From positions 558,001 through 622,000 of the forward strand of contig ML210147.1 in the NCBI GenBank assembly GCA_004369085.1: a DNA stretch of 64,000 nucleotides. Direction: 5' to 3'. Shown piece by piece: positions 17,733 to 49,879 of this stretch. Numbering within the stretch: the first letter of the stretch is position 1; every line of letters begins with the position of its first letter. The stretch comes from Coprinopsis marcescibilis. Taxonomy: Eukaryota; Basidiomycota; Agaricomycetes; Agaricales; Psathyrellaceae. Under the pieces are notes generated by a model that had not been told where the DNA came from, did no database searches, and saw nothing but the letters and a program-made list of their open reading frames with translations. The translations under genes were made by a program, and so were the position numbers.

Positions 17733-18913
17733 TCACTCTGGCGGGGTAAAAGGGCTTCTACGATAGGCAGGGGCCACGATGATAGAGGGTAATTGCTTTG
17801 CGAGTTCAGCAGTACCGGCAGGGAAGGGCAGGTCGTCGACACCCTTGGGAAGGATCTTTTCTGTCTTTCCCTTGACTTCGTTATGTTTCCCGACGGCCAT
17901 GACTTTCTTCGCGTCTTGGATGTACACCGGGCCGTCGTCGATACCTGGGACAGCACCGCGGACGTAGACGAGGTTGAGCGCGCTATCTACTCGGACAACG
18001 GCAAGATTTTGCACAGTGACTTGCTTTCCGCCCATTCTACCAGCCATCTTCTTTCCGGGGAAAACACGACCAGGATCCTAGAAAATATTCCAGAGTCAAT
18101 GAAGAGACAAGATTGAATAGTGACCAGAACATACCTGATGGTTACCTGTCGAACCTGCCGAACGATGCGAAACTGACACACCGTGACTGGCTGCCAAACC
18201 ATGGTATCCCCAGCGTTTCATGACACCTTGGAAACCCTTTCCGATGCTAAAGTTGTAGCTATGTTAGCAAAGTAGACGGGGCAAGATGTCAAACTCACGA
18301 TTTAGCAACGACGTCAACGTATTGGCCTGGTACATAGTGGACAGCGTTCAAGGTGGTACCTGCAAATACAACGTCAGATTCTATTTGAAGACATGATAGG
18401 GACATTTGAATTACCTACTGGCACATGTGCGTCTGGCGTCACAGGGAACTCCTTGACAAAGCGTTTTGGTGTGACTGCGGCTTTGCGGAAATGGCCCAGC
18501 ATTTGGCGGGTTGTGGTTTTGCTGGGGCGGTCAGACGAAGCTACCTGGACTGCATGGTACACCGTGTGGTCAGGACGGCCGGTTACAACGTTGGCTGTGA
18601 CTTGACAATTGTCGAGCTGCCGAAACGTTCTGTCAACCATGGCTTCTGAGTATTGAGCACTTTCTGTAATCACCTGCAGAACTGTGACAGGGATACGAAC
18701 GCCTTGGTCGTTCCATAGCGATGCCATTCCACGTTTAATAGCAATAACACCAGTTCTAACGGAAGTTGGCTTCCATTTAGCTGGCTCCGCGTTCGCGTCT
18801 TTTGGTGTGCTGGAGGGTGATGCTTCTGCGCTGGTGGTAGCTGAATAGTGTAGAGAACGTAATTGACAGAGTCCTGCGGTCCTGCGTCTGGATATAGCCC
18901 AAGCCCCCCACAT
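17733..18913 (-). CDS. Mitochondrial large ribosomal subunit protein uL3m
   Basis: The start [15 protein letters not shown] at 18913 has Arg-rich, acid-poor mitochondrial targeting character and is followed by a Ser/Thr/Pro stretch. The uL3 fold is recognisable from [19 protein letters not shown] through VTVLQV and [11 protein letters not shown]. The conserved core is [20 protein letters not shown], then GSTG, then [20 protein letters not shown]. The protein ends RRSPFTPPE. It is about 340 residues long with three small introns. uL3m helps build the peptidyl-transferase region of the mitoribosome. The gene is divergent from the TAF1C-like gene, with 242 bp between the starts. Confidence 0.92.
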
Positions 18914-41823: not shown

Positions 41824-44800
41824 ATGCTTGGACGCCGTGGGGGGCCGCGTCTTGTTCCTTATGTTGAAATAACCGTTCAGAGGAAGAATACCAAGCGACA
41901 ACGATCTCCTACTGTAAATCCAGTCCCGCGCCCGTCGCAACCAAAACGCGGGAGATATGATGAGCAGGACAGTCCTGCTCCTGGGGGAGAGGTATTTAAG
42001 CTTTTGGAATGCCTATCGACGAAGCTGATCATCCACTGCCCATGTATAGGACGATCGACACTCTCCAACCGTCTCGGAAATAGCAGAGGTGGTAAGAATT
42101 TCAAAGCCATGGTATTACCCCCACTTACAGATCATACGCAGTGCCGCGCCAATCGCGAGATGTCCATCTCGCCTTCAGTATCAGAGTTCGTGGCGAATGA
42201 ATTATTGACAGAGGGCCGAGAGGAGTCACCCTTCCCGCCCCCGCCTGGGTCCACCACTCCAGCTGGCTTGACAGAACTCGAGAGTAGGTGTTCAATTAAA
42301 TTGGTCGGTCGGCTGCTCACACCAATGCCTTCTAGTCCCCTCCACCTATGTTTCTCAAGAAGAGGAAATCGAGGAGTCCGGCGACTTGGTAGTCTACGGA
42401 GAAACACCTGGCGAATCTGTTTCTGATAACGATTCGGATGACAGCGACGACGATCACATTCCTGTTCGACGACTAGACAACTTCACCATCTATGAACGTT
42501 CAACGCGGAAGGTCGTCCCAGCTATCCTTCTGCGTGATCTATCGTCGCGAACAAATTACCGGGCGTCGGGCGTTGTTCGCCCTTGGATTCGAGAAGAAGA
42601 CGAAGCGGACGAAGACAGCGACTCTGACAGCGACTCTGAATCTGCGCCAGATATCAACTCGTACTCTGACTGGGACCGTGTTAACCTGAAGTCTATCCTT
42701 GAACTTAGCATTCACCACGTGGACGAACACTCGGTCCTGGATAGGTGAGAATTCGACCCTTTCATTCGTACATTGACAAACACGCTAAATGTGTAACAGC
42801 AAAATTTATATACGCACTCCCCATGCATGGTATATTCTCGGCCAACCTTCTGCTTCCTATCGACCTTTATTCAAGCAAATGTGGATTGAACATCGAATTT
42901 CGCACCTCTTGCTGAGGGCTGCTGAAGACGATCCCCGCCTTTCTTACGACGCGTTCCAGAAGTCCCTGCCGCGTCTTGATGACAAGGAAGCTTCAATCGT
43001 CAACGCAAGAGACATATTGGGCAGGGGTATCTTGCCAGATGATCTCAACGACTTTGGGGTGGTATGTCTGGTTTTATCATAAGATTTTAGAACATTACTG
43101 ACTTGGTTTCTGTGTGAAATCTATAGACGACGTACCTTGAAGCCATTGGACTAGACTCGGAGCTAGTAGATGCTTTGGGAATAAGGCGTTCACAACTCAT
43201 CCGACGCTTTTCAGCGAAGCTGGGCAGAGTGTTTGATGGCGATTCGGAAGATTTGGACCCAGATTTTATACTGTCGAAGCCTTCCGAAAAGTCATCTGTT
43301 GCCAGAAAGTCCAAGGCAGCGCTGAAAACGGCACCCATTGTTATCACCCCTATTGTAGGGCGAATTTCAGAGGGTCTGTTCCAAGTGAAGATGAAGAAAA
43401 CGTCGTCGGGTGATGATGAAATGTTGTTACCCCCGACCTGGACAGGACAGAAGATGGCGCGGCACCTGTACAATGCTGAGAAGGTGATATTGGGCCGCAA
43501 AACTGGGGAAAATGAATACTTTGATATTTTCATTGATGCTGTTTGCTACAAGGTGGGCCAATTTTATTAAACTGTGATATGTCTCTGGCTGACATTTATG
43601 GTTCTGCAGGCTGGTGATGTTGTTATGGTTGTACCAGACAAGGATTATAAGGAACCATATGACTGTATCTGGACAACCAGCAAATATGGAGACAAGTACT
43701 GGTATGTGTATTATATATTAGCTTCTCTTTTTCATGCTCAAAGTTTATAGGTTCTGCCAGATACAGTACTTCTTTGTGAAACCTCAGACAATGGGGTCTT
43801 CTGAGTTCATGTTCCATGGACAGTGGTTTCTCCACAGCTCAAGAACAGTTGCTGTTGGAGAGCTTTCCCATCCCAATGCTCTTTATCTTATTGAGGATTG
43901 CATCTCAAACTCAGTTAACTGCATCTATCAGAAGTGTAACTTTTGTTACCTTCAGCCAGGTGATAGTGAACCTCCAGAACAGCCTGATTCCAATGAATTT
44001 TTCTGCAGGTAAGCCAAACTTTTCAGCTTTAGAAGGCATATTTATGTTTCTTGCTCTTATTTCTAGTCTTGTCTATGACCAGGAAGAGGGAAGCCTGGTT
44101 GATATTCCAGAAAGTTGCTTTGAAGTTCTGGAGCCCACTTGTTCCAGGGTTTGTCTTGGCTGTCAAGCTAGAAATCAGAAGGATGGGATGGAAAACCCAG
44201 CAGTCTCCAACAATGATGACTTATGTCTCCAATATGGTGGCTTTAGCTATCATCTTTGGGACTATGTCTATCTGGTTCCTGCTGGAAGTTCCAAACTTCT
44301 TCAGATTGCCCAAATTCAGTCAATCAAAGGCAATGGCAGTACTACATCTGTTCAGGTGAAGCACTTGGAACGACAGAACTTCTATAGAGAGAAGCTAGAC
44401 TCCAAGCTCTTCTCACAACCCTTTGATTCAAGATGTATCACTGATGAGGTGAGTATTTACCACTTGGATAGTAATTTATATAATTGGATTTGTATTGAAA
44501 AAGATTTATACCAGTGCCAGCTTGTTTATACCAGTGAGATTGAAAATATCTCACTGGCATCATTAAGTGGGGTTTGCTATGTTCAATACTTTTCTACCAA
44601 GAAGGAGATTGACCAGTGGGTTCAACATAATGATCACTTTGTAGTTTTGGAAAAGTATAGCCAAGGCAAACTACTTTCCATTTCACAACTTGACTTTATC
44701 TGCTGTGAATTCTGTCATGATGCCAGGGTGGAAAACCTTCAAGAATGGGATGAATTTATCAACTTGCAACACAAGTTGGTAGGAATGGAGCTTTTCAGTG

Positions 44801-46905
44801 GTGAGTTTTGATTATTGGGTTGTGAATGATAAGCAAGAGATCTAAGCAAATTATGTTGTACTCAGGTGCAGGAGGGCTTGGTCTTGGGATGGAGCTATCT
44901 GGCTTTGTTGAGACCAAGTATGCAGTAGAGTTTCAAGAATCTGCTGCACTTACATACCAGTAGGTTTTGCTCTGACTGATAATATTTTCTGAATATTGGG
45001 TTTTCTAACTTGTTGCAGAGAAAACAATCCTCAAGCCAAGGTTTATTGTCAAGACTCTAATTTGCTGCTTCAGCAGGCTGTTGCCCAAGATAATGGAGAA
45101 AAGCCTTCTTTGGTTATGTCTATGGATGGCAAAACACCTTGTCCTAGAATGCCATCAAGACAGGATGGAATTGACTTTATATTTGGTGGTATGTGTAAAG
45201 CTCTTTTTATTTATAGGTATTACTGACTTTATATTACAGGTCCTCCATGCCAAGGGTTCAGTAGAATGAACCATGATAGGGTATGTTTTATCTTTCAGCT
45301 TATTGATTTTTGCATGATATTTTGCTCTTAGCAAGATAATGACATACGAACCAGTATGCCTTGCAATATGCTTAGCTTTGCTGAGCATTATGAGCCATCT
45401 TATTTTCTGCTGGAGAATGTTGTTGGGATATTTGACTTCAAGCTCAAGGATTGGAGAGCAGGAAGAAATGGGGAGGTAATTGAATGGGGAATGGTCAAAT
45501 TTATCAACCGCACCCTTGAAGCCCTTGGGTAAGTCTCTTCTATCAATTTAAAACATTTGCTTACTAAAATTTCCAGCTATCAAGTCAGGTGGAAGCAGAT
45601 GCAGGCTGCTCAGTATGGGGTACCTCAGTCCCGTGGTAGGGTTATCTTTTGGGCAGCAAAGCGTGGCTTCAAGATGCCCAAATTTCCTCCTCCAACTCAT
45701 GCTCACCAACGAGGTGCCCAGTGCCCTGCTTTTCCTGGTACAAACAGGAAGCAGCGCCCACTGCCACCGTCAAGGGCTCTTATCCCAACACCAGATGGAA
45801 AATACCATCAATGTGCACCACTTCCTCCACTATCTATTTTTGATGCTATTTCTGATCTGGTAAGCACTAAAAATCAGTCCAGTGGGTTTGCATTGATTGT
45901 TCTTTGAATTGTAGCCTGCTTTTGACTGGTAGGCTGTTTTGCGGATGTATAGGAGTGATAACAAACTAATTATAAACCATAGGAAGAACCCTATGAAGGT
46001 TTATCAGCCCAAGCACAAAGTAGACAACCAGCTGCGCAGGTCATTTGGAAAGCCTATACCAGTTCTGGATGCTGTTTGTGGAAAGGGAAGGAGAGAAACA
46101 GAATTTGTTGGATATGCAGATGGTGCCAATTATGCAACTCCTCCAATGAACAGGTATCAAAGTTCAATACGTGGAAATATGAAGAAGGGTCAACTGGTTA
46201 CTGGACAGTATACCAAGTGTTTTACATCTATCACTGTGGAAAAGTGAGTTTTTTCCTGCCTAATTTGTGATGAATTGCAATTATCTAAATTTGTTCCTAT
46301 AGAACCACTTCTATTCCTTTAAAACCAGGTGCTAAACACACAGGTCAGCAGCAGCTCAGTGATGGTTTATTTGATATTGCTTGTGTTGAACAGAAGTATG
46401 TGACAGATCTACCAATGGTATTGTGGCCTGAAATGGCCAAGCCTGGTCGCAAGCAGGAGGATAAAGGTGAATAAGCCATTATGCATTTTCTATGTCTGTT
46501 TTTTCTGACTATTATGCAAGTCTTCTTTGGTCGATTGGACGGGAATGAACACTTTAAATGTGCAATGACCAACCTGGCACCTAATGTCAAACAAGTGTGG
46601 CCTCTACACCCTCTTCAACGACGGATATACAGCGTGAGGGAGTGCGCACGGGCCCAGGGGTTCCCTGACGATTACCTCTTCTGCTCGACGAACACTGAGC
46701 CCTCAAAAGTAATCAGTGATGTAGGTGTATCAGCTTTCTCCAGGACTCGCGCTCAAAGCTCACATTGATTTTCCGTCGTTAGCAAATCAGGCAGATTGGC
46801 AATGCGGTTGCTGTACCATTTGCTCGTGCGCTAGGAAAGGAATTGGGAGCTGCCCGGATCTCCGATTGGAAGAAGAAACAGCGAGAGGGGAGCCCAATCC
46901 TGTAG
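41824..46905 (+). CDS. DNA (cytosine-5)-methyltransferase, DNMT1 type
   Basis: Maintenance-type CpG methylase. Domains in order: basic N terminus (MLGRRGGPRLVPY); replication-foci-type RFD (NFTIYERSTRKVVPAILL, HAWYILGQPSASYRPLFKQM); BAH1 (AGDVVMVVPDKDYKEPY to NALYLIEDC); BAH2 (LWDYVYLVPAGSSKLLQIAQ onward); catalytic domain. Catalytic motifs are intact across introns: I (ELFSGAGGLGLGMELSG), IV (GGPPCQGFSRMN with the catalytic Cys), VI (FLLENVVGIF), VIII (QYGVPQSRGRVIFWAAK), then SDLPAFDWKNP, IX/X (RECARAQGFPDDY, RQIGNAVAVPFARAL). The stop is at 46903-46905 after KKQREGSPIL. Roughly 1,300 residues with many short introns; no frameshift seen. From about 43.5 to 46.5 kb both exons and introns are nearly free of CpG and Arg is mostly AGA/AGG, unlike either flank. 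Confidence 0.93.
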
Positions 46906-47105
46906 GTTTCTGATGCTAGCAGAGAGCGGCACGATAATGTCCCCAGAAGCTGTCTTATTTCTTGATGACTGCGGTGTTTGTGGACTTGGGCTGTAATTTG
47001 TTAGGGATTCGTTTATGTACATTTGATTTTCAGGTACATTTGATTTTCAAGTTGACAATTGGAGATGTGTCTTCATCCTCGTACAACGCAGGTTACGCAA
47101 AGGTT

Positions 47106-47714
47106 TCAAGATTCCGGGGAAGTCGAGGACTTTGCCAAGATGTCCTGCACGCGGCGCACTTTGTGGTCGTTGCCCTCTCCGAACGGAGTATCTCTGTCGA
47201 CGCGGGTACCGATGCGGATGTCGGTTGCGATGCGCAGAGCTCCTTTTGCATGGACGGCGGCATGGCAGTCGTGAATGGCCTTGGAAACTTGGGACCATGG
47301 GCCTTCTGAAGGAAGCGATGCGGTCAGGACAAATGTCCCAAGAAATAAGAGGCGGCCATACCTAGATTGGTACCATATCCACTGCAGGCAGACAGCAATT
47401 GAGAGGGAAACGACGGCCCCACGAACGCATCTGAGTGGAGATTGACGGATCGAAAGCAGGACGCTTACTGAAGCTGATAGATATTTAACGGTGTCAAGGC
47501 CATGTCAATGTCTGGATAGAACGTAGACGCACCGTAAACTTCAAACCCGACTTCTCGAGGACCCTCTGACACTCGGCCACCTCTTCAGCGACCTTGAAAG
47601 CAAATTGGACATTTTTTAGAACAAGGAGACGGGCCAATCACACCGAGAACAACGTACGGATGGATTGGCGGTCCCTATTGGGATAAGACAGAAATCTAGA
47701 CTGAGATGAGACAT
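47106..47714 (-). CDS. UPF0045/MTH1187 (YkoF-like) thiamine-binding-type protein
   Basis: Assembled from short minus-strand exons. Exon 1 starts MSHLSLDFCLIPIGTANPS at 47714. After an intron comes VAEEVAECQRVLEKSGL, then SGYGTNLEG, then GPWSQVSKAIHDCHAAVHAK and TDIRIGTRVDRDTPFGEG, ending SSTSPES at 47106. The motifs IPIGT, the final GxWxxVxxxIxxCHxxVH and TDIRIGTR are those of the MTH1187/Ecm15 family, small alpha/beta proteins related to thiamine-binding YkoF. About 100 residues. Exon edges between 47400 and 47550 are not resolved. An alternative start lies at 47783 (MSSSSDNDLYAVA). Confidence 0.7.
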
Positions 47715-47850
47715 CTGGAAGACATACGAGAATAAACGGACAACCTGCGACAGCATAGAGGTCGTTGTCGGACGAGGAGGACATCGTGGACTGAAAGCAA
47801 GCGGAGTTTTGTCTGAATTTGGCTGGCCCACGCCTCTTGGTCCTGTCCAT

Positions 47851-49879
47851 ATGCCATTGACACTGCAGTCGCGCATATCCGCCTTTGAAGCTCTTGCTGG
47901 CGGCGCCTCCAACCACGATGCCCTCAATGCCAGCCCGCCGTCGTCGCCCACGACGTCCAGAACCTTGAGGTCGTCGCCAGCGTCCCTCATAGACGCCCCT
48001 CTTTCTGCCGCGACAGTAGCAACCTTGCCCCCAGTGGCCTCCTTCTCATCACTGTCACAGAGGAAGCTATCGCCCTCACCGTCGCCTCCAAATCTCGGCA
48101 GAAAGACGTCCCTCATCGACCTCACGGACTGGATCGTCGATGATGACAGTGTCTCGGCAGCTCCTCCATCGAACGGAGCACCAACACTGAAACCGAAACC
48201 TGTTATTGTCAGGAAGCCGTCGAGCAATGGATTTGTCGACGGACGGACGCCTACTCAGCAGGCATTCAGAAACGCAAAGTCACCACCGTTGTCTCTGCTC
48301 ATCAACCTCGAGTCTCCACCACGGCGCAAGGGCGAGACAGGTGGCCCTTCTCCACCACCTCTGCCCCCTCGCAAAGCATCATATACATCCCTCAAATCCA
48401 TAGCATCCACTTCTTCATCTCAGTCCTCAGCTCCAGCAGTCAACGGGCCCTATCTCTATCCTCCACGTCGTGCAGATTCGCTTACGGTTGACACTATACA
48501 GCACGCTTACCCACCGTCTCCTGTAAACGGGGACTCTCGGTCACCCACGAAGCATGTTCAAGGATCCTCAATATCCTCATTTCACTCTGTTTCATTGTCG
48601 TCTGATACAGACCCAGCTACGCCCAACTCGCTGTCCGACTTCATTGCGACATACCCCATCGACCACTCCAATGAGACCGATTCAGGGAGCCTCGAGGAAT
48701 CATACGAAGACGTGTCCAAATCATCCCTTGCTAGCCCCGCTACGGAACGTATGATAACCCTAGATTTCGAGCGAGCTCGTGCTCGGCGCAACAATAGCAT
48801 CCCACCCAGCCTCCCACAAAGACCTGCGTCAAACTCATCATTCAGCACCCCATCATCATCTGCGCGGTCTTCCATGAAATCTCCGCCTCCGATTCCCCCC
48901 TCTAGAGCCTCTCAACAAGCTGCACGTATGTCCGCTGCCTCGATGCCCGGGTCCCCCGTCAGCCACCCACAGCATTCCAACTACATTACGCAGATCCCCA
49001 CAACGTATGCCGTCCGACGGCCGCCACCCATACCACCGTCGCGTGCCTCTGATCGCTCATCTGTCCAAAGCAATGTCACATCGTATAGCATCTCATCAGC
49101 CAGCAACCAATCGCATCGTTCTCTGAGTAGGACTGGTACTATAACCAGCATCAGCTCAACAAACTCTTCGCCGAAAGTCCTCAAGACTAATCGACCAACC
49201 CCGGTTCCAGCAGCAGCGCGTAAACGTTACGAGGCCGTATTTAATGGCAACATCATTCAGCGCAGACGAGCGGAGAAGAAGCAGCGGAAGATTGCATTGA
49301 TGAAGTTGCAGGGTAATGCTGGCGGTAATAAGGGGAACAGTTTCTTGAATCCAAATGAATATCGGGGGAGACGAGCAGCTGGTTGGAGAGGCTTGTCAGT
49401 CGACTTGATCAATGCGGATCCGAAGACCGTAGCCGACCAGCTCAATCAACAGAAAAAGGAAGACGAGGAAGAGGACAAAGTGAACGAGTTTGTTGGCAAG
49501 GACGAAAGGATAGAGGGTGCTATTGTAAAGTTTATCTGGAAGAATTCTGGGTTGGGCAAAAAGCGTCTGGGTGAAATATGGTTGGTTCTCTCTGCGTTGC
49601 ATGCTCTCGCGACTCTTCTAACTTGATTGTGTCCTTAACAGGAACGAGTGCGATCCACACCACACTGGGTCCTTGGATCTCGATAACTTTGTCAAGGGCA
49701 TGTGGCGCATCGATGAGGAACTTCGGCGTAACCAAACGGGTCTCCTCAAGAAGGCTAGCTCCGCCAGCCTCGCTTCCCTCGCTTCCAAACATTCTCTATC
49801 CAGGCAATCCAGCCTTGTTGGTCTACGAGGGAATGTCCCAATCTCGAGCTATCGCCCCCCTCGTGTTCTTCTTCGGTGA
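47851..49879 (+). CDS. EH-domain protein, Irs4/Tax4-like
   Basis: The start is MPLTLQSRISAFEALAGG at 47851, the first in-frame ATG; LQSRISAFE is typical of fungal Irs4-type proteins. The long middle is disordered and Ser/Pro rich with PPPLPPRK and PPPIPPSRAS repeats (SH3 ligands). The C-terminal part begins RKRYEAVFNGNIIQRRR and includes WRGLSVDLIN. It ends in an EH domain split by one intron (49580-49641): KFIWKNSGLGKKRLGEIW, then NECDPHHTGSLDLDNFVKGMW with an EF-hand-like loop. Yeast Irs4/Tax4 bind Inp51, controlling PI(4,5)P2 and autophagy. About 655 residues. Divergent from the UPF0045 gene. Confidence 0.8.

What the first reader, a model, noticed from the sequence alone, without database searches (positions are those of the whole stretch)
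43495..46530. CpG desert inside the DNMT1 gene
From about 43495 to 46530 the DNMT1 gene has only about a dozen CpG dinucleotides in 3 kb. The 420 bp just upstream (43081-43500) hold about 21, and the 3' end (46620-46905) is CpG-rich again. Introns are as depleted as exons, so this is a DNA-level effect, not codon choice. TG/CA is abundant, Arg codons shift to AGA/AGG, and the edges are abrupt. Both BAH domains and catalytic motifs I-VIII remain intact. CpG loss of this kind is the known mark of 5-methylcytosine deamination. The inference is either that the methylase's own gene body has been a long-term germline methylation target (possible autoregulation), or that this tract came by gene conversion or capture from a methylated multi-copy DNMT1 relative.
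Basis: partly seen in the sequence, partly recalled or inferred. Interest (0 to 1): 0.85.

Follow-up and report, generated by a model that had tools for sequence, protein, structure and literature searches.

The report
CpG desert inside mushroom DNMT1 gene
In the mushroom Coprinopsis marcescibilis the middle 3 kb of the gene for the CpG-methylating enzyme DNMT1 has lost nearly all its CpG sites, in the way expected if that stretch was itself methylated for a very long time, although the gene still reads as intact.

Summary
Window 43498-46530 has 12 CpG in 3033 bp (o/e 0.10) against about 174 expected; the 121 other window bins examined are at 0.71 or more and 504 bins sampled elsewhere at 0.32 or more. 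The organism is Coprinopsis marcescibilis. The loss is CpG-specific: third-position C before G 0 of 237 codons, introns as depleted as exons, 10 of 11 remaining exonic CpGs in Arg CGN codons, 5 of 6 lost ancestral Args now Cys or Gln. GC, CpG and TpG/CpA fit old, near-saturated CpG hypermutability better than a recent pulse. The gene is the native syntenic DNMT1, single copy, tree-concordant inside and outside the tract; the second RFD-bearing gene is CpG-normal. Best reading: a sharply bounded gene-body methylation domain, now eroded, on the C. marcescibilis lineage. What first targeted it is open: an old duplication, an epimutation or feedback. Capture from a foreign or present multicopy relative is not supported. 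No methylation data could be seen, relatives' DNA was out of reach, and 0.7% of the genome outside the window was sampled.

The parts
41824..46905 (+). DNMT1 gene, hand-made model: 17 exons, 16 short GT-AG introns, open frame of 1387 aa
   Evidence: Exons joined and translated without internal stop; Pfam DNMT1-RFD, BAH, DNA_methylase; best homologue Coprinopsis cinerea CC2G_005536, 47% over 89%. No RNA evidence; start codon and the 14-bp exon 45915-45928 are uncertain.
43498..46530 (.). CpG desert: 12 CpG in 3033 bp, o/e 0.10, GC 0.405
43498..45500 (.). Most depleted 2 kb of the desert: 2 CpG, both in Arg CGA codons (44371, 45347)
41824..43497 (+). 5' part of the same gene (N-terminus with RFD), CpG-normal
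   Evidence: Exon CpG 31, 37, 15, 21 against expected 32.8, 25.7, 15.5, 23.7 (the fourth exon runs 55 bp into the desert); both gene flanks together CpG o/e 1.00
46531..46905 (+). 3' end of the same gene (last part of the catalytic domain), CpG-normal
   Evidence: Exons 46521-46720 and 46783-46905 with 10 and 6 CpG, intron between them with 4
47710..49626 (+). Neighbouring EH-domain protein gene (single long ORF) that marks the conserved locus
   Evidence: 100% to Coprinopsis marcescibilis FA15DRAFT_663351 over 95%; neighbouring locus tags to DNMT1 in several Agaricomycetes

Best explanation
The middle of the native, single-copy, intact DNMT1 gene of C. marcescibilis has carried a stable, sharply bounded domain of dense CpG methylation for a long evolutionary time on this lineage. 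Deamination of 5-methylcytosine turned CpG into TpG/CpA on both strands, in exons and introns alike. Purifying selection kept the protein, so surviving CpGs are mostly Arg codons and many other Args are AGR, with some turned into Cys or Gln. Shown: the depletion, its edges, its CpG specificity, its deamination-like products, native ancestry, single copy. Inferred: that methylation was the cause and that it was present in the nuclei that are passed on. Inferred, weaker: that the domain was first laid down by homology-triggered methylation of a once-duplicated segment (which would set sharp edges in mid-exon) or by an epimutation, and was then copied by the maintenance enzyme itself. The 5' part and the last 375 bp stay CpG-normal, as is typical of gene-body methylation elsewhere (recalled).
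For: CpG-specific loss: third-position C before G 0 of 237 codons (38 of 197 in the same gene outside; 667 of 2545 in reference ORFs), while twofold C/T codons before non-G change only from 0.61 to 0.50. Introns o/e 0.06, exons 0.10. 10 of 11 residual exonic CpGs are Arg CGN against 40 of 120 outside, Fisher p 2.7e-4. Of 20 ancestral Args inside, 6 were lost, to Cys 2, Gln 3, Lys 1; outside 3 of 18, none to Cys/His/Gln/Trp; the share of changed columns is 0.20 in both parts, so the protein is under ordinary constraint. The inside-minus-outside contrast of the (Cys+Gln+His+Trp)/Arg index is the largest of 126 DNMT1 proteins (1.39; next 1.03; mean 0.36, SD 0.30). A neutral simulation with CpG-specific rate 20-40 gives GC 0.40-0.42, CpG o/e 0.08-0.15, TG/CA 1.37-1.43 near equilibrium; observed 0.405, 0.10, about 1.34. 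Same clade for desert and flanks. One of six KDZ-transposase stretches in the same genome shows clear loss in the same direction (o/e 0.45, TG/CA 1.28), and C. cinerea mycelium has about 7.8% mCG (PMC7862722, table passage).
Against: No methylation data were available. The six KDZ-transposase stretches are far less depleted (0.45-0.95), so the gene would have been methylated longer or harder than these. Fungal gene bodies are generally reported as unmethylated, with exceptions (PMC13297926 and PMC7862722, passages). The Arg-loss counts are small, and controls are mixed: C. cinerea lost 4 of 19 Args inside (1 to His) and 3 of 17 outside (2 to Gln); Coprinopsis sp. lost 3 of 17 (none to C/H/Q/W) and 3 of 15 (1 to Cys). 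In the inside-only index the window gene ranks third of 135, not first. CpG-neutral GC3 is also lower inside (0.48 against 0.56), though within the reference-ORF range (0.44-0.69). The TpG+CpA gain by frequency (about 79) is half the CpG loss (about 162), and the observed TG/CA is slightly below every near-equilibrium simulation. The two other Coprinopsis proteins show no Arg depletion in the aligned part.
Confidence: 0.72

Rival explanations
1. Methylation thermostat: DNMT1 methylates its own gene body, which hinders elongation and so holds enzyme dose steady; the desert is the mutational scar of that feedback.
For: The desert sits in the methylase's own gene body with CpG-normal ends, is lineage-specific by protein signature, and exceeds the sampled transposon stretches.
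Against: With 12 CpG left there is little substrate for feedback now. P. ostreatus DNMTase transcripts were insensitive to 5-azacytidine (PMC5073141, passage). The other Coprinopsis species show no protein-level sign of it.
Confidence: 0.13
2. Tract replacement: gene conversion or introgression brought in a 3-kb segment from an already CpG-depleted allele or paralogue (congener, or a lost silenced copy).
For: Sharp edges in mid-exon at both ends. Distances differ somewhat between desert and flanks (window gene to C. cinerea 1.17 against 0.92). The Zymoseptoria dim2 gene shows introgressed allele tracts and homology-directed mutation (PMC8016269, passages).
Against: No donor found in the genome by DNA or protein; desert and flanks fall in the same Coprinopsis clade; the donor would itself need long methylation with a preserved frame.
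Confidence: 0.14
3. Selection removed CpGs so that the methylase gene cannot be silenced by its own product.
For: CpG-free but intact gene; AGR used for 20 of 30 Args.
Against: Arg losses to Cys and Gln are deamination products, not a cost-free way to avoid CpG (small counts); introns are equally depleted; the promoter-near part is untouched.
Confidence: 0.07
4. Ordinary composition, codon bias or assembly artefact.
For: None found in the part sampled.
Against: No bin outside the desert comes near it among 121 other window bins and 504 sampled bins; the frame is open across all joined exons.
Confidence: 0.02

Closest known systems
Gene-body CpG methylation of animals and plants, with historical CpG depletion (recalled; touched on in PMC13297926 and PMC7862722, passages)
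   Same: CpG loss in exons and introns of the gene middle, 5' and 3' ends spared, gene intact.
   Different: Most fungi are reported to lack it (Uncinocarpus reesii and Metarhizium robertsii are named as exceptions in PMC7862722); here it is inferred in one gene, o/e 0.10, with abrupt edges; methylation not observed.
Zymoseptoria tritici dim2 (PMC8016269, passages)
   Same: A DNA methyltransferase gene is itself hit by methylation-linked C-to-T mutation.
   Different: There: RIP-type, extra copies in most isolates, gene broken in most of them. Here: CpG only, single copy, gene intact.
CpG-type mutation of transposons in Basidiomycota, linked to a Masc2/DNMT1-like enzyme (PMC4352252, passages)
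   Same: CpG-to-TpG signature attributed to 5mC deamination.
   Different: That is in repeats; this is a unique host gene, more depleted than the transposon stretches sampled here.
[quoted passage not shown] title seen as a reference entry only; mentioned in a passage of PMC5073141)
   Same: A close relative (old name of Coprinopsis cinerea, recalled); would supply duplication-defined edges.
   Different: No duplicate was found now.

Membership tests
DNMT1/Masc2 (DNMT1-RFD) methyltransferase | RFD, BAH and C-5 methylase domains | tested here: met
   Pfam PF12047, PF01426 (one stretch), PF00145 above cut-offs
DNMT1/Masc2 (DNMT1-RFD) methyltransferase | Orthology with Agaricales DNMT1 | tested here: met
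   Coprinopsis clade in trees of both parts; shared EH-gene neighbour by locus tags
Gene-body methylation | CpG depletion in mid-gene exons and introns, ends spared | tested here: met
Gene-body methylation | 5mC present on the gene | not testable with these tools
   No methylation data
Repeat-induced point mutation | Target duplicated in the genome | tested here: not met
   One match only by DNA, itself; by protein only distant C325 paralogues besides itself
Repeat-induced point mutation | Frame-breaking C-to-T, ascomycete CpA preference | tested here: not met
   Open frame; loss is at CpG, while CpA and TpG are in excess
Relic of homology-triggered methylation (MIP-like) | Former duplicate with the same edges | tested here: inconclusive
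   No duplicate found now; repeats in 42500-47500 are at most 24 bp
Transposon-borne or captured DNMT | Mobile-element context or foreign phylogeny | tested here: not met
   Syntenic locus, native phylogeny, no long direct or inverted repeats in 42500-47500

The most novel reading that the evidence does not exclude
A fungal maintenance methylase gene is its own long-standing methylation target: an autoregulated, edge-defined gene-body methylation domain, inherited for long enough to saturate CpG decay, in a kingdom thought mostly to lack gene-body methylation.
Probability: 0.15. Interest if true: 0.85.

Novelty: new variant of a known kind. Interest (0 to 1): 0.6.

Why it matters
If the domain was methylated, it is a natural record of one host-gene methylation domain kept with fixed borders over a long time in a fungus, at the very gene that copies methylation. 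It offers a clean test of whether maintenance by DNMT1 can keep a mark without a present trigger, and whether DNMT1 dose is fed back through its own gene body.

Tried and rejected
Multicopy origin: tract DNA against the whole genome gave one match, itself; its protein gave only the C325 paralogues besides itself. Paralogues as desert carriers: C325 stretches o/e 0.89 and 0.91, C3 0.93, C106 0.89. Edge or terminal repeats: direct repeats of at most 24 bp and one 16-bp inverted pair in 42500-47500. Foreign origin: rejected by concordant trees. General drop in GC: mostly explained by CpG. Recurrence of the desert in other mushrooms: the Arg-loss index is above 1.2 in 13 of 135 DNMT1s, the window gene included (third), but most of the others are low in Arg outside the tract too, and none matches its inside-outside contrast; not decided without their DNA. 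A viral-contig scan for relatives' DNA found none. Literature: the searches listed no paper whose title or abstract start describes a CpG-depleted DNMT1 gene body in mushrooms (searches returned no paper at all; one search failed; one search was a background search). Six papers were then looked at in passages (one section read in full), none as a whole.

Genome letters were rationed, so 252,545 unmasked bases outside the window (0.7% of 36.3 Mb) were used; one window bin and the masked bins were left out of the counts. Reference ORFs are 29 stop-to-stop frames of 180 aa or more, not curated genes. The simulation treats the tract as neutral although most of it is coding, and its time unit is arbitrary. 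Homologues: of the 171 DNMT1 hits listed (longer than 1000 aa, first 79 hits) went into, and 134 (longer than 840 aa, distant non-mushroom hits left out) into; alignment columns with low occupancy and rows with too little of a region were dropped there (126 rows in the contrast).
Full report
What is there. The window is contig C2 558001-622000 of a 36.3-Mb genome in 448 contigs. The neighbouring EH-domain protein matches Coprinopsis marcescibilis FA15DRAFT_663351 at 100% over 95%, on a contig of 1,288,392 bases, the length of C2, so the organism is C. marcescibilis. The gene at 41824-46905 (+) is a DNMT1: joining 17 exons by hand gives an open frame of 1387 residues with DNMT1-RFD, BAH and DNA_methylase matches above cut-off. 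Its best homologue is C. cinerea CC2G_005536 (47% over 89%).

The desert. From 43498 to 46530 there are 12 CpG in 3033 bp, o/e 0.10, against about 174 at the window's background frequency. The likelihood-fitted edges are 43498 (43462-43531) and 46530 (46497-46617), with a gain of 95 lnL units over no change. The 121 other window bins examined (one bin with N left out) have o/e of at least 0.71, and 504 bins from 31 stretches elsewhere (252,545 unmasked bases) at least 0.32. The lowest of 192 other 3-kb windows (0.44 and 0.47) lie in a KDZ-transposase stretch. Both edges fall inside exons, so one gene is CpG-normal at its ends and nearly CpG-free in its middle.

It is a CpG effect, not GC or codon choice. 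Third-position C before G: 0 of 237 codons inside, 38 of 197 in the same gene outside, 667 of 2545 in 29 reference ORFs; for twofold codons before non-G the C share is 0.50, 0.61 and 0.61. Introns inside hold 1 CpG in 660 bp (16.3 expected); exons wholly inside have o/e 0.10. TpG and CpA are in excess (o/e 1.30 and 1.41, against 1.11 and 1.08 in the rest of the window). GC in CpG-neutral third positions is also lower (0.48 against 0.56), within the spread of the reference ORFs, 0.44-0.69.

Mutation met selection. Of 11 exonic CpGs left, 10 are the CG of Arg codons, where either deamination changes the residue, against 40 of 120 in the rest of the gene (p 2.7e-4). Of the ten desert Args in columns where at least half of the relatives have Arg, six are CGN (730, 980, 1034, 1059, 1069, 1202) and four AGR; of the twenty other desert Args, four are CGN (1085, 1100, 1157, 1275). 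So conservation explains much of the retention but not all. Of 20 ancestral Args inside, 6 were lost, to Cys 2, Gln 3, Lys 1; outside 3 of 18, to Gly, Asp, Ile. Controls: C. cinerea lost 4 of 19 inside (Lys 2, Glu, His) and 3 of 17 outside (Gln 2, Ala); Coprinopsis sp. MPI-PUGE-AT-0042 lost 3 of 17 inside (Lys 2, Gly) and 3 of 15 outside (Lys, Cys, Thr). The share of changed polarised columns is 0.20 inside and outside for the window gene and 0.20 inside for C. cinerea, so this is not a decaying pseudogene. The inside-minus-outside contrast of the Arg-loss index is the largest of 126 DNMT1s; by the inside index alone the gene ranks third of 135. The two other Coprinopsis proteins have ordinary indices (ranks 34 and 41 of 135), so the desert most likely arose, or at least left its protein mark, on the C. 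marcescibilis branch.

Age. In a neutral simulation, a fast pulse that empties CpGs leaves GC about 0.43 and TG/CA about 1.46; long exposure with a CpG rate of 20-40 gives GC 0.40-0.42 and TG/CA 1.37-1.43. Observed GC 0.405 and TG/CA about 1.34 (from the counts) lie nearer the old state, a little below it in TG/CA. The unit is not years and most of the tract is coding, so this ranks readings and does not date.

Native locus. The tract is single copy by DNA and, by protein, matches only itself and distant C325 paralogues at 30-42% identity. Trees from the desert part and from the rest both place the gene with C. cinerea (support 0.998 and 0.991) and, with more taxa, in a three-species Coprinopsis clade (1.0 and 0.994). 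Consecutive locus tags of DNMT1 and the EH gene occur in Tephrocybe rancida (DXG01_005939/005940), Asterophora parasitica (DXG03_007164/007165), Hohenbuehelia grisea (HGRIS_012742/012743), Blastosporella zonata (C0991_002414/002415) and Steccherinum ochraceum (EIP91_000302/000303), and near ones in Arthromyces matolae and Agrocybe chaxingu. The second RFD-bearing gene, on C325, is CpG-normal (0.91).

Mechanism. Best reading: a bounded domain of CpG methylation in the gene body, kept through many generations, with decay by deamination. This matches the CpG-only signature in basidiomycete repeats linked to Masc2-type enzymes (PMC4352252, passages) and the strong CG preference of Basidiomycota methylation (PMC13297926, section 2.5 read). 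It is unusual because fungal gene bodies are reported as mostly unmethylated, with exceptions (PMC13297926, PMC7862722, passages). The cause of targeting is not shown. Sharp mid-exon edges favour a homology-defined start (a former duplicate; [quoted passage not shown] The position in the methylase's own gene invites a feedback reading, against which stands the 5-azacytidine result in P. ostreatus (PMC5073141, passage). The nearest parallel, Zymoseptoria dim2, is a methylase gene hit by homology-directed mutation and introgression, but broken and with extra copies in most isolates (PMC8016269, passages).

Against my reading: no methylation was measured; the six KDZ-transposase stretches are far less depleted (0.45-0.95); only 0.7% of the genome outside the window was sampled, so other deserts may exist; the polarised Arg counts are small and the controls mixed; and a vanished donor cannot be excluded.

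Noticed in passing
L034 (C302:12001-16000) and L033 (C302 around 18263-18682): A stretch with a KDZ transposase match (4 stops inside) and, about 3.4 kb away, the only Tet_JBP match listed for the genome; CpG o/e 0.45 and 0.62, against 0.78-0.95 in five other KDZ stretches.
   Followed up: partly
C325:15600-22950 (L009, L010): Two further DNMT1-like genes lie close together in the same orientation, one with an RFD match; both CpG-normal and only about 22-42% identical to the window gene in matched pieces.
   Followed up: partly
Homologues P0009, P0019, P0066, P0258, P0264, P0034: DNMT1 proteins of scattered mushrooms (Pholiota conissans, Neolentinus lepideus, two Dentipellis, Cyclocybe aegerita, one unnamed) have a similarly low Arg and high Cys/Gln/His/Trp content in the aligned part; may point to recurrent CpG loss in this gene.
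   Followed up: partly
window 41824-46905: No C. marcescibilis protein for this DNMT1 gene is among the 120 listed hits of either DNMT1 search, although its neighbour is listed; its annotated model may be absent, broken or left out.
   Followed up: no
window 47710-49626: EH-domain gene next to DNMT1: the pair is kept across many Agaricomycetes, while DNMT1 itself diverges faster (47% against 72% identity to C. cinerea).
   Followed up: partly
C400:1-10000 (L027), last half: The unmasked part has a reduced CpG o/e of 0.68 with one 500-bp bin at 0.32; the rest is masked.
   Followed up: no
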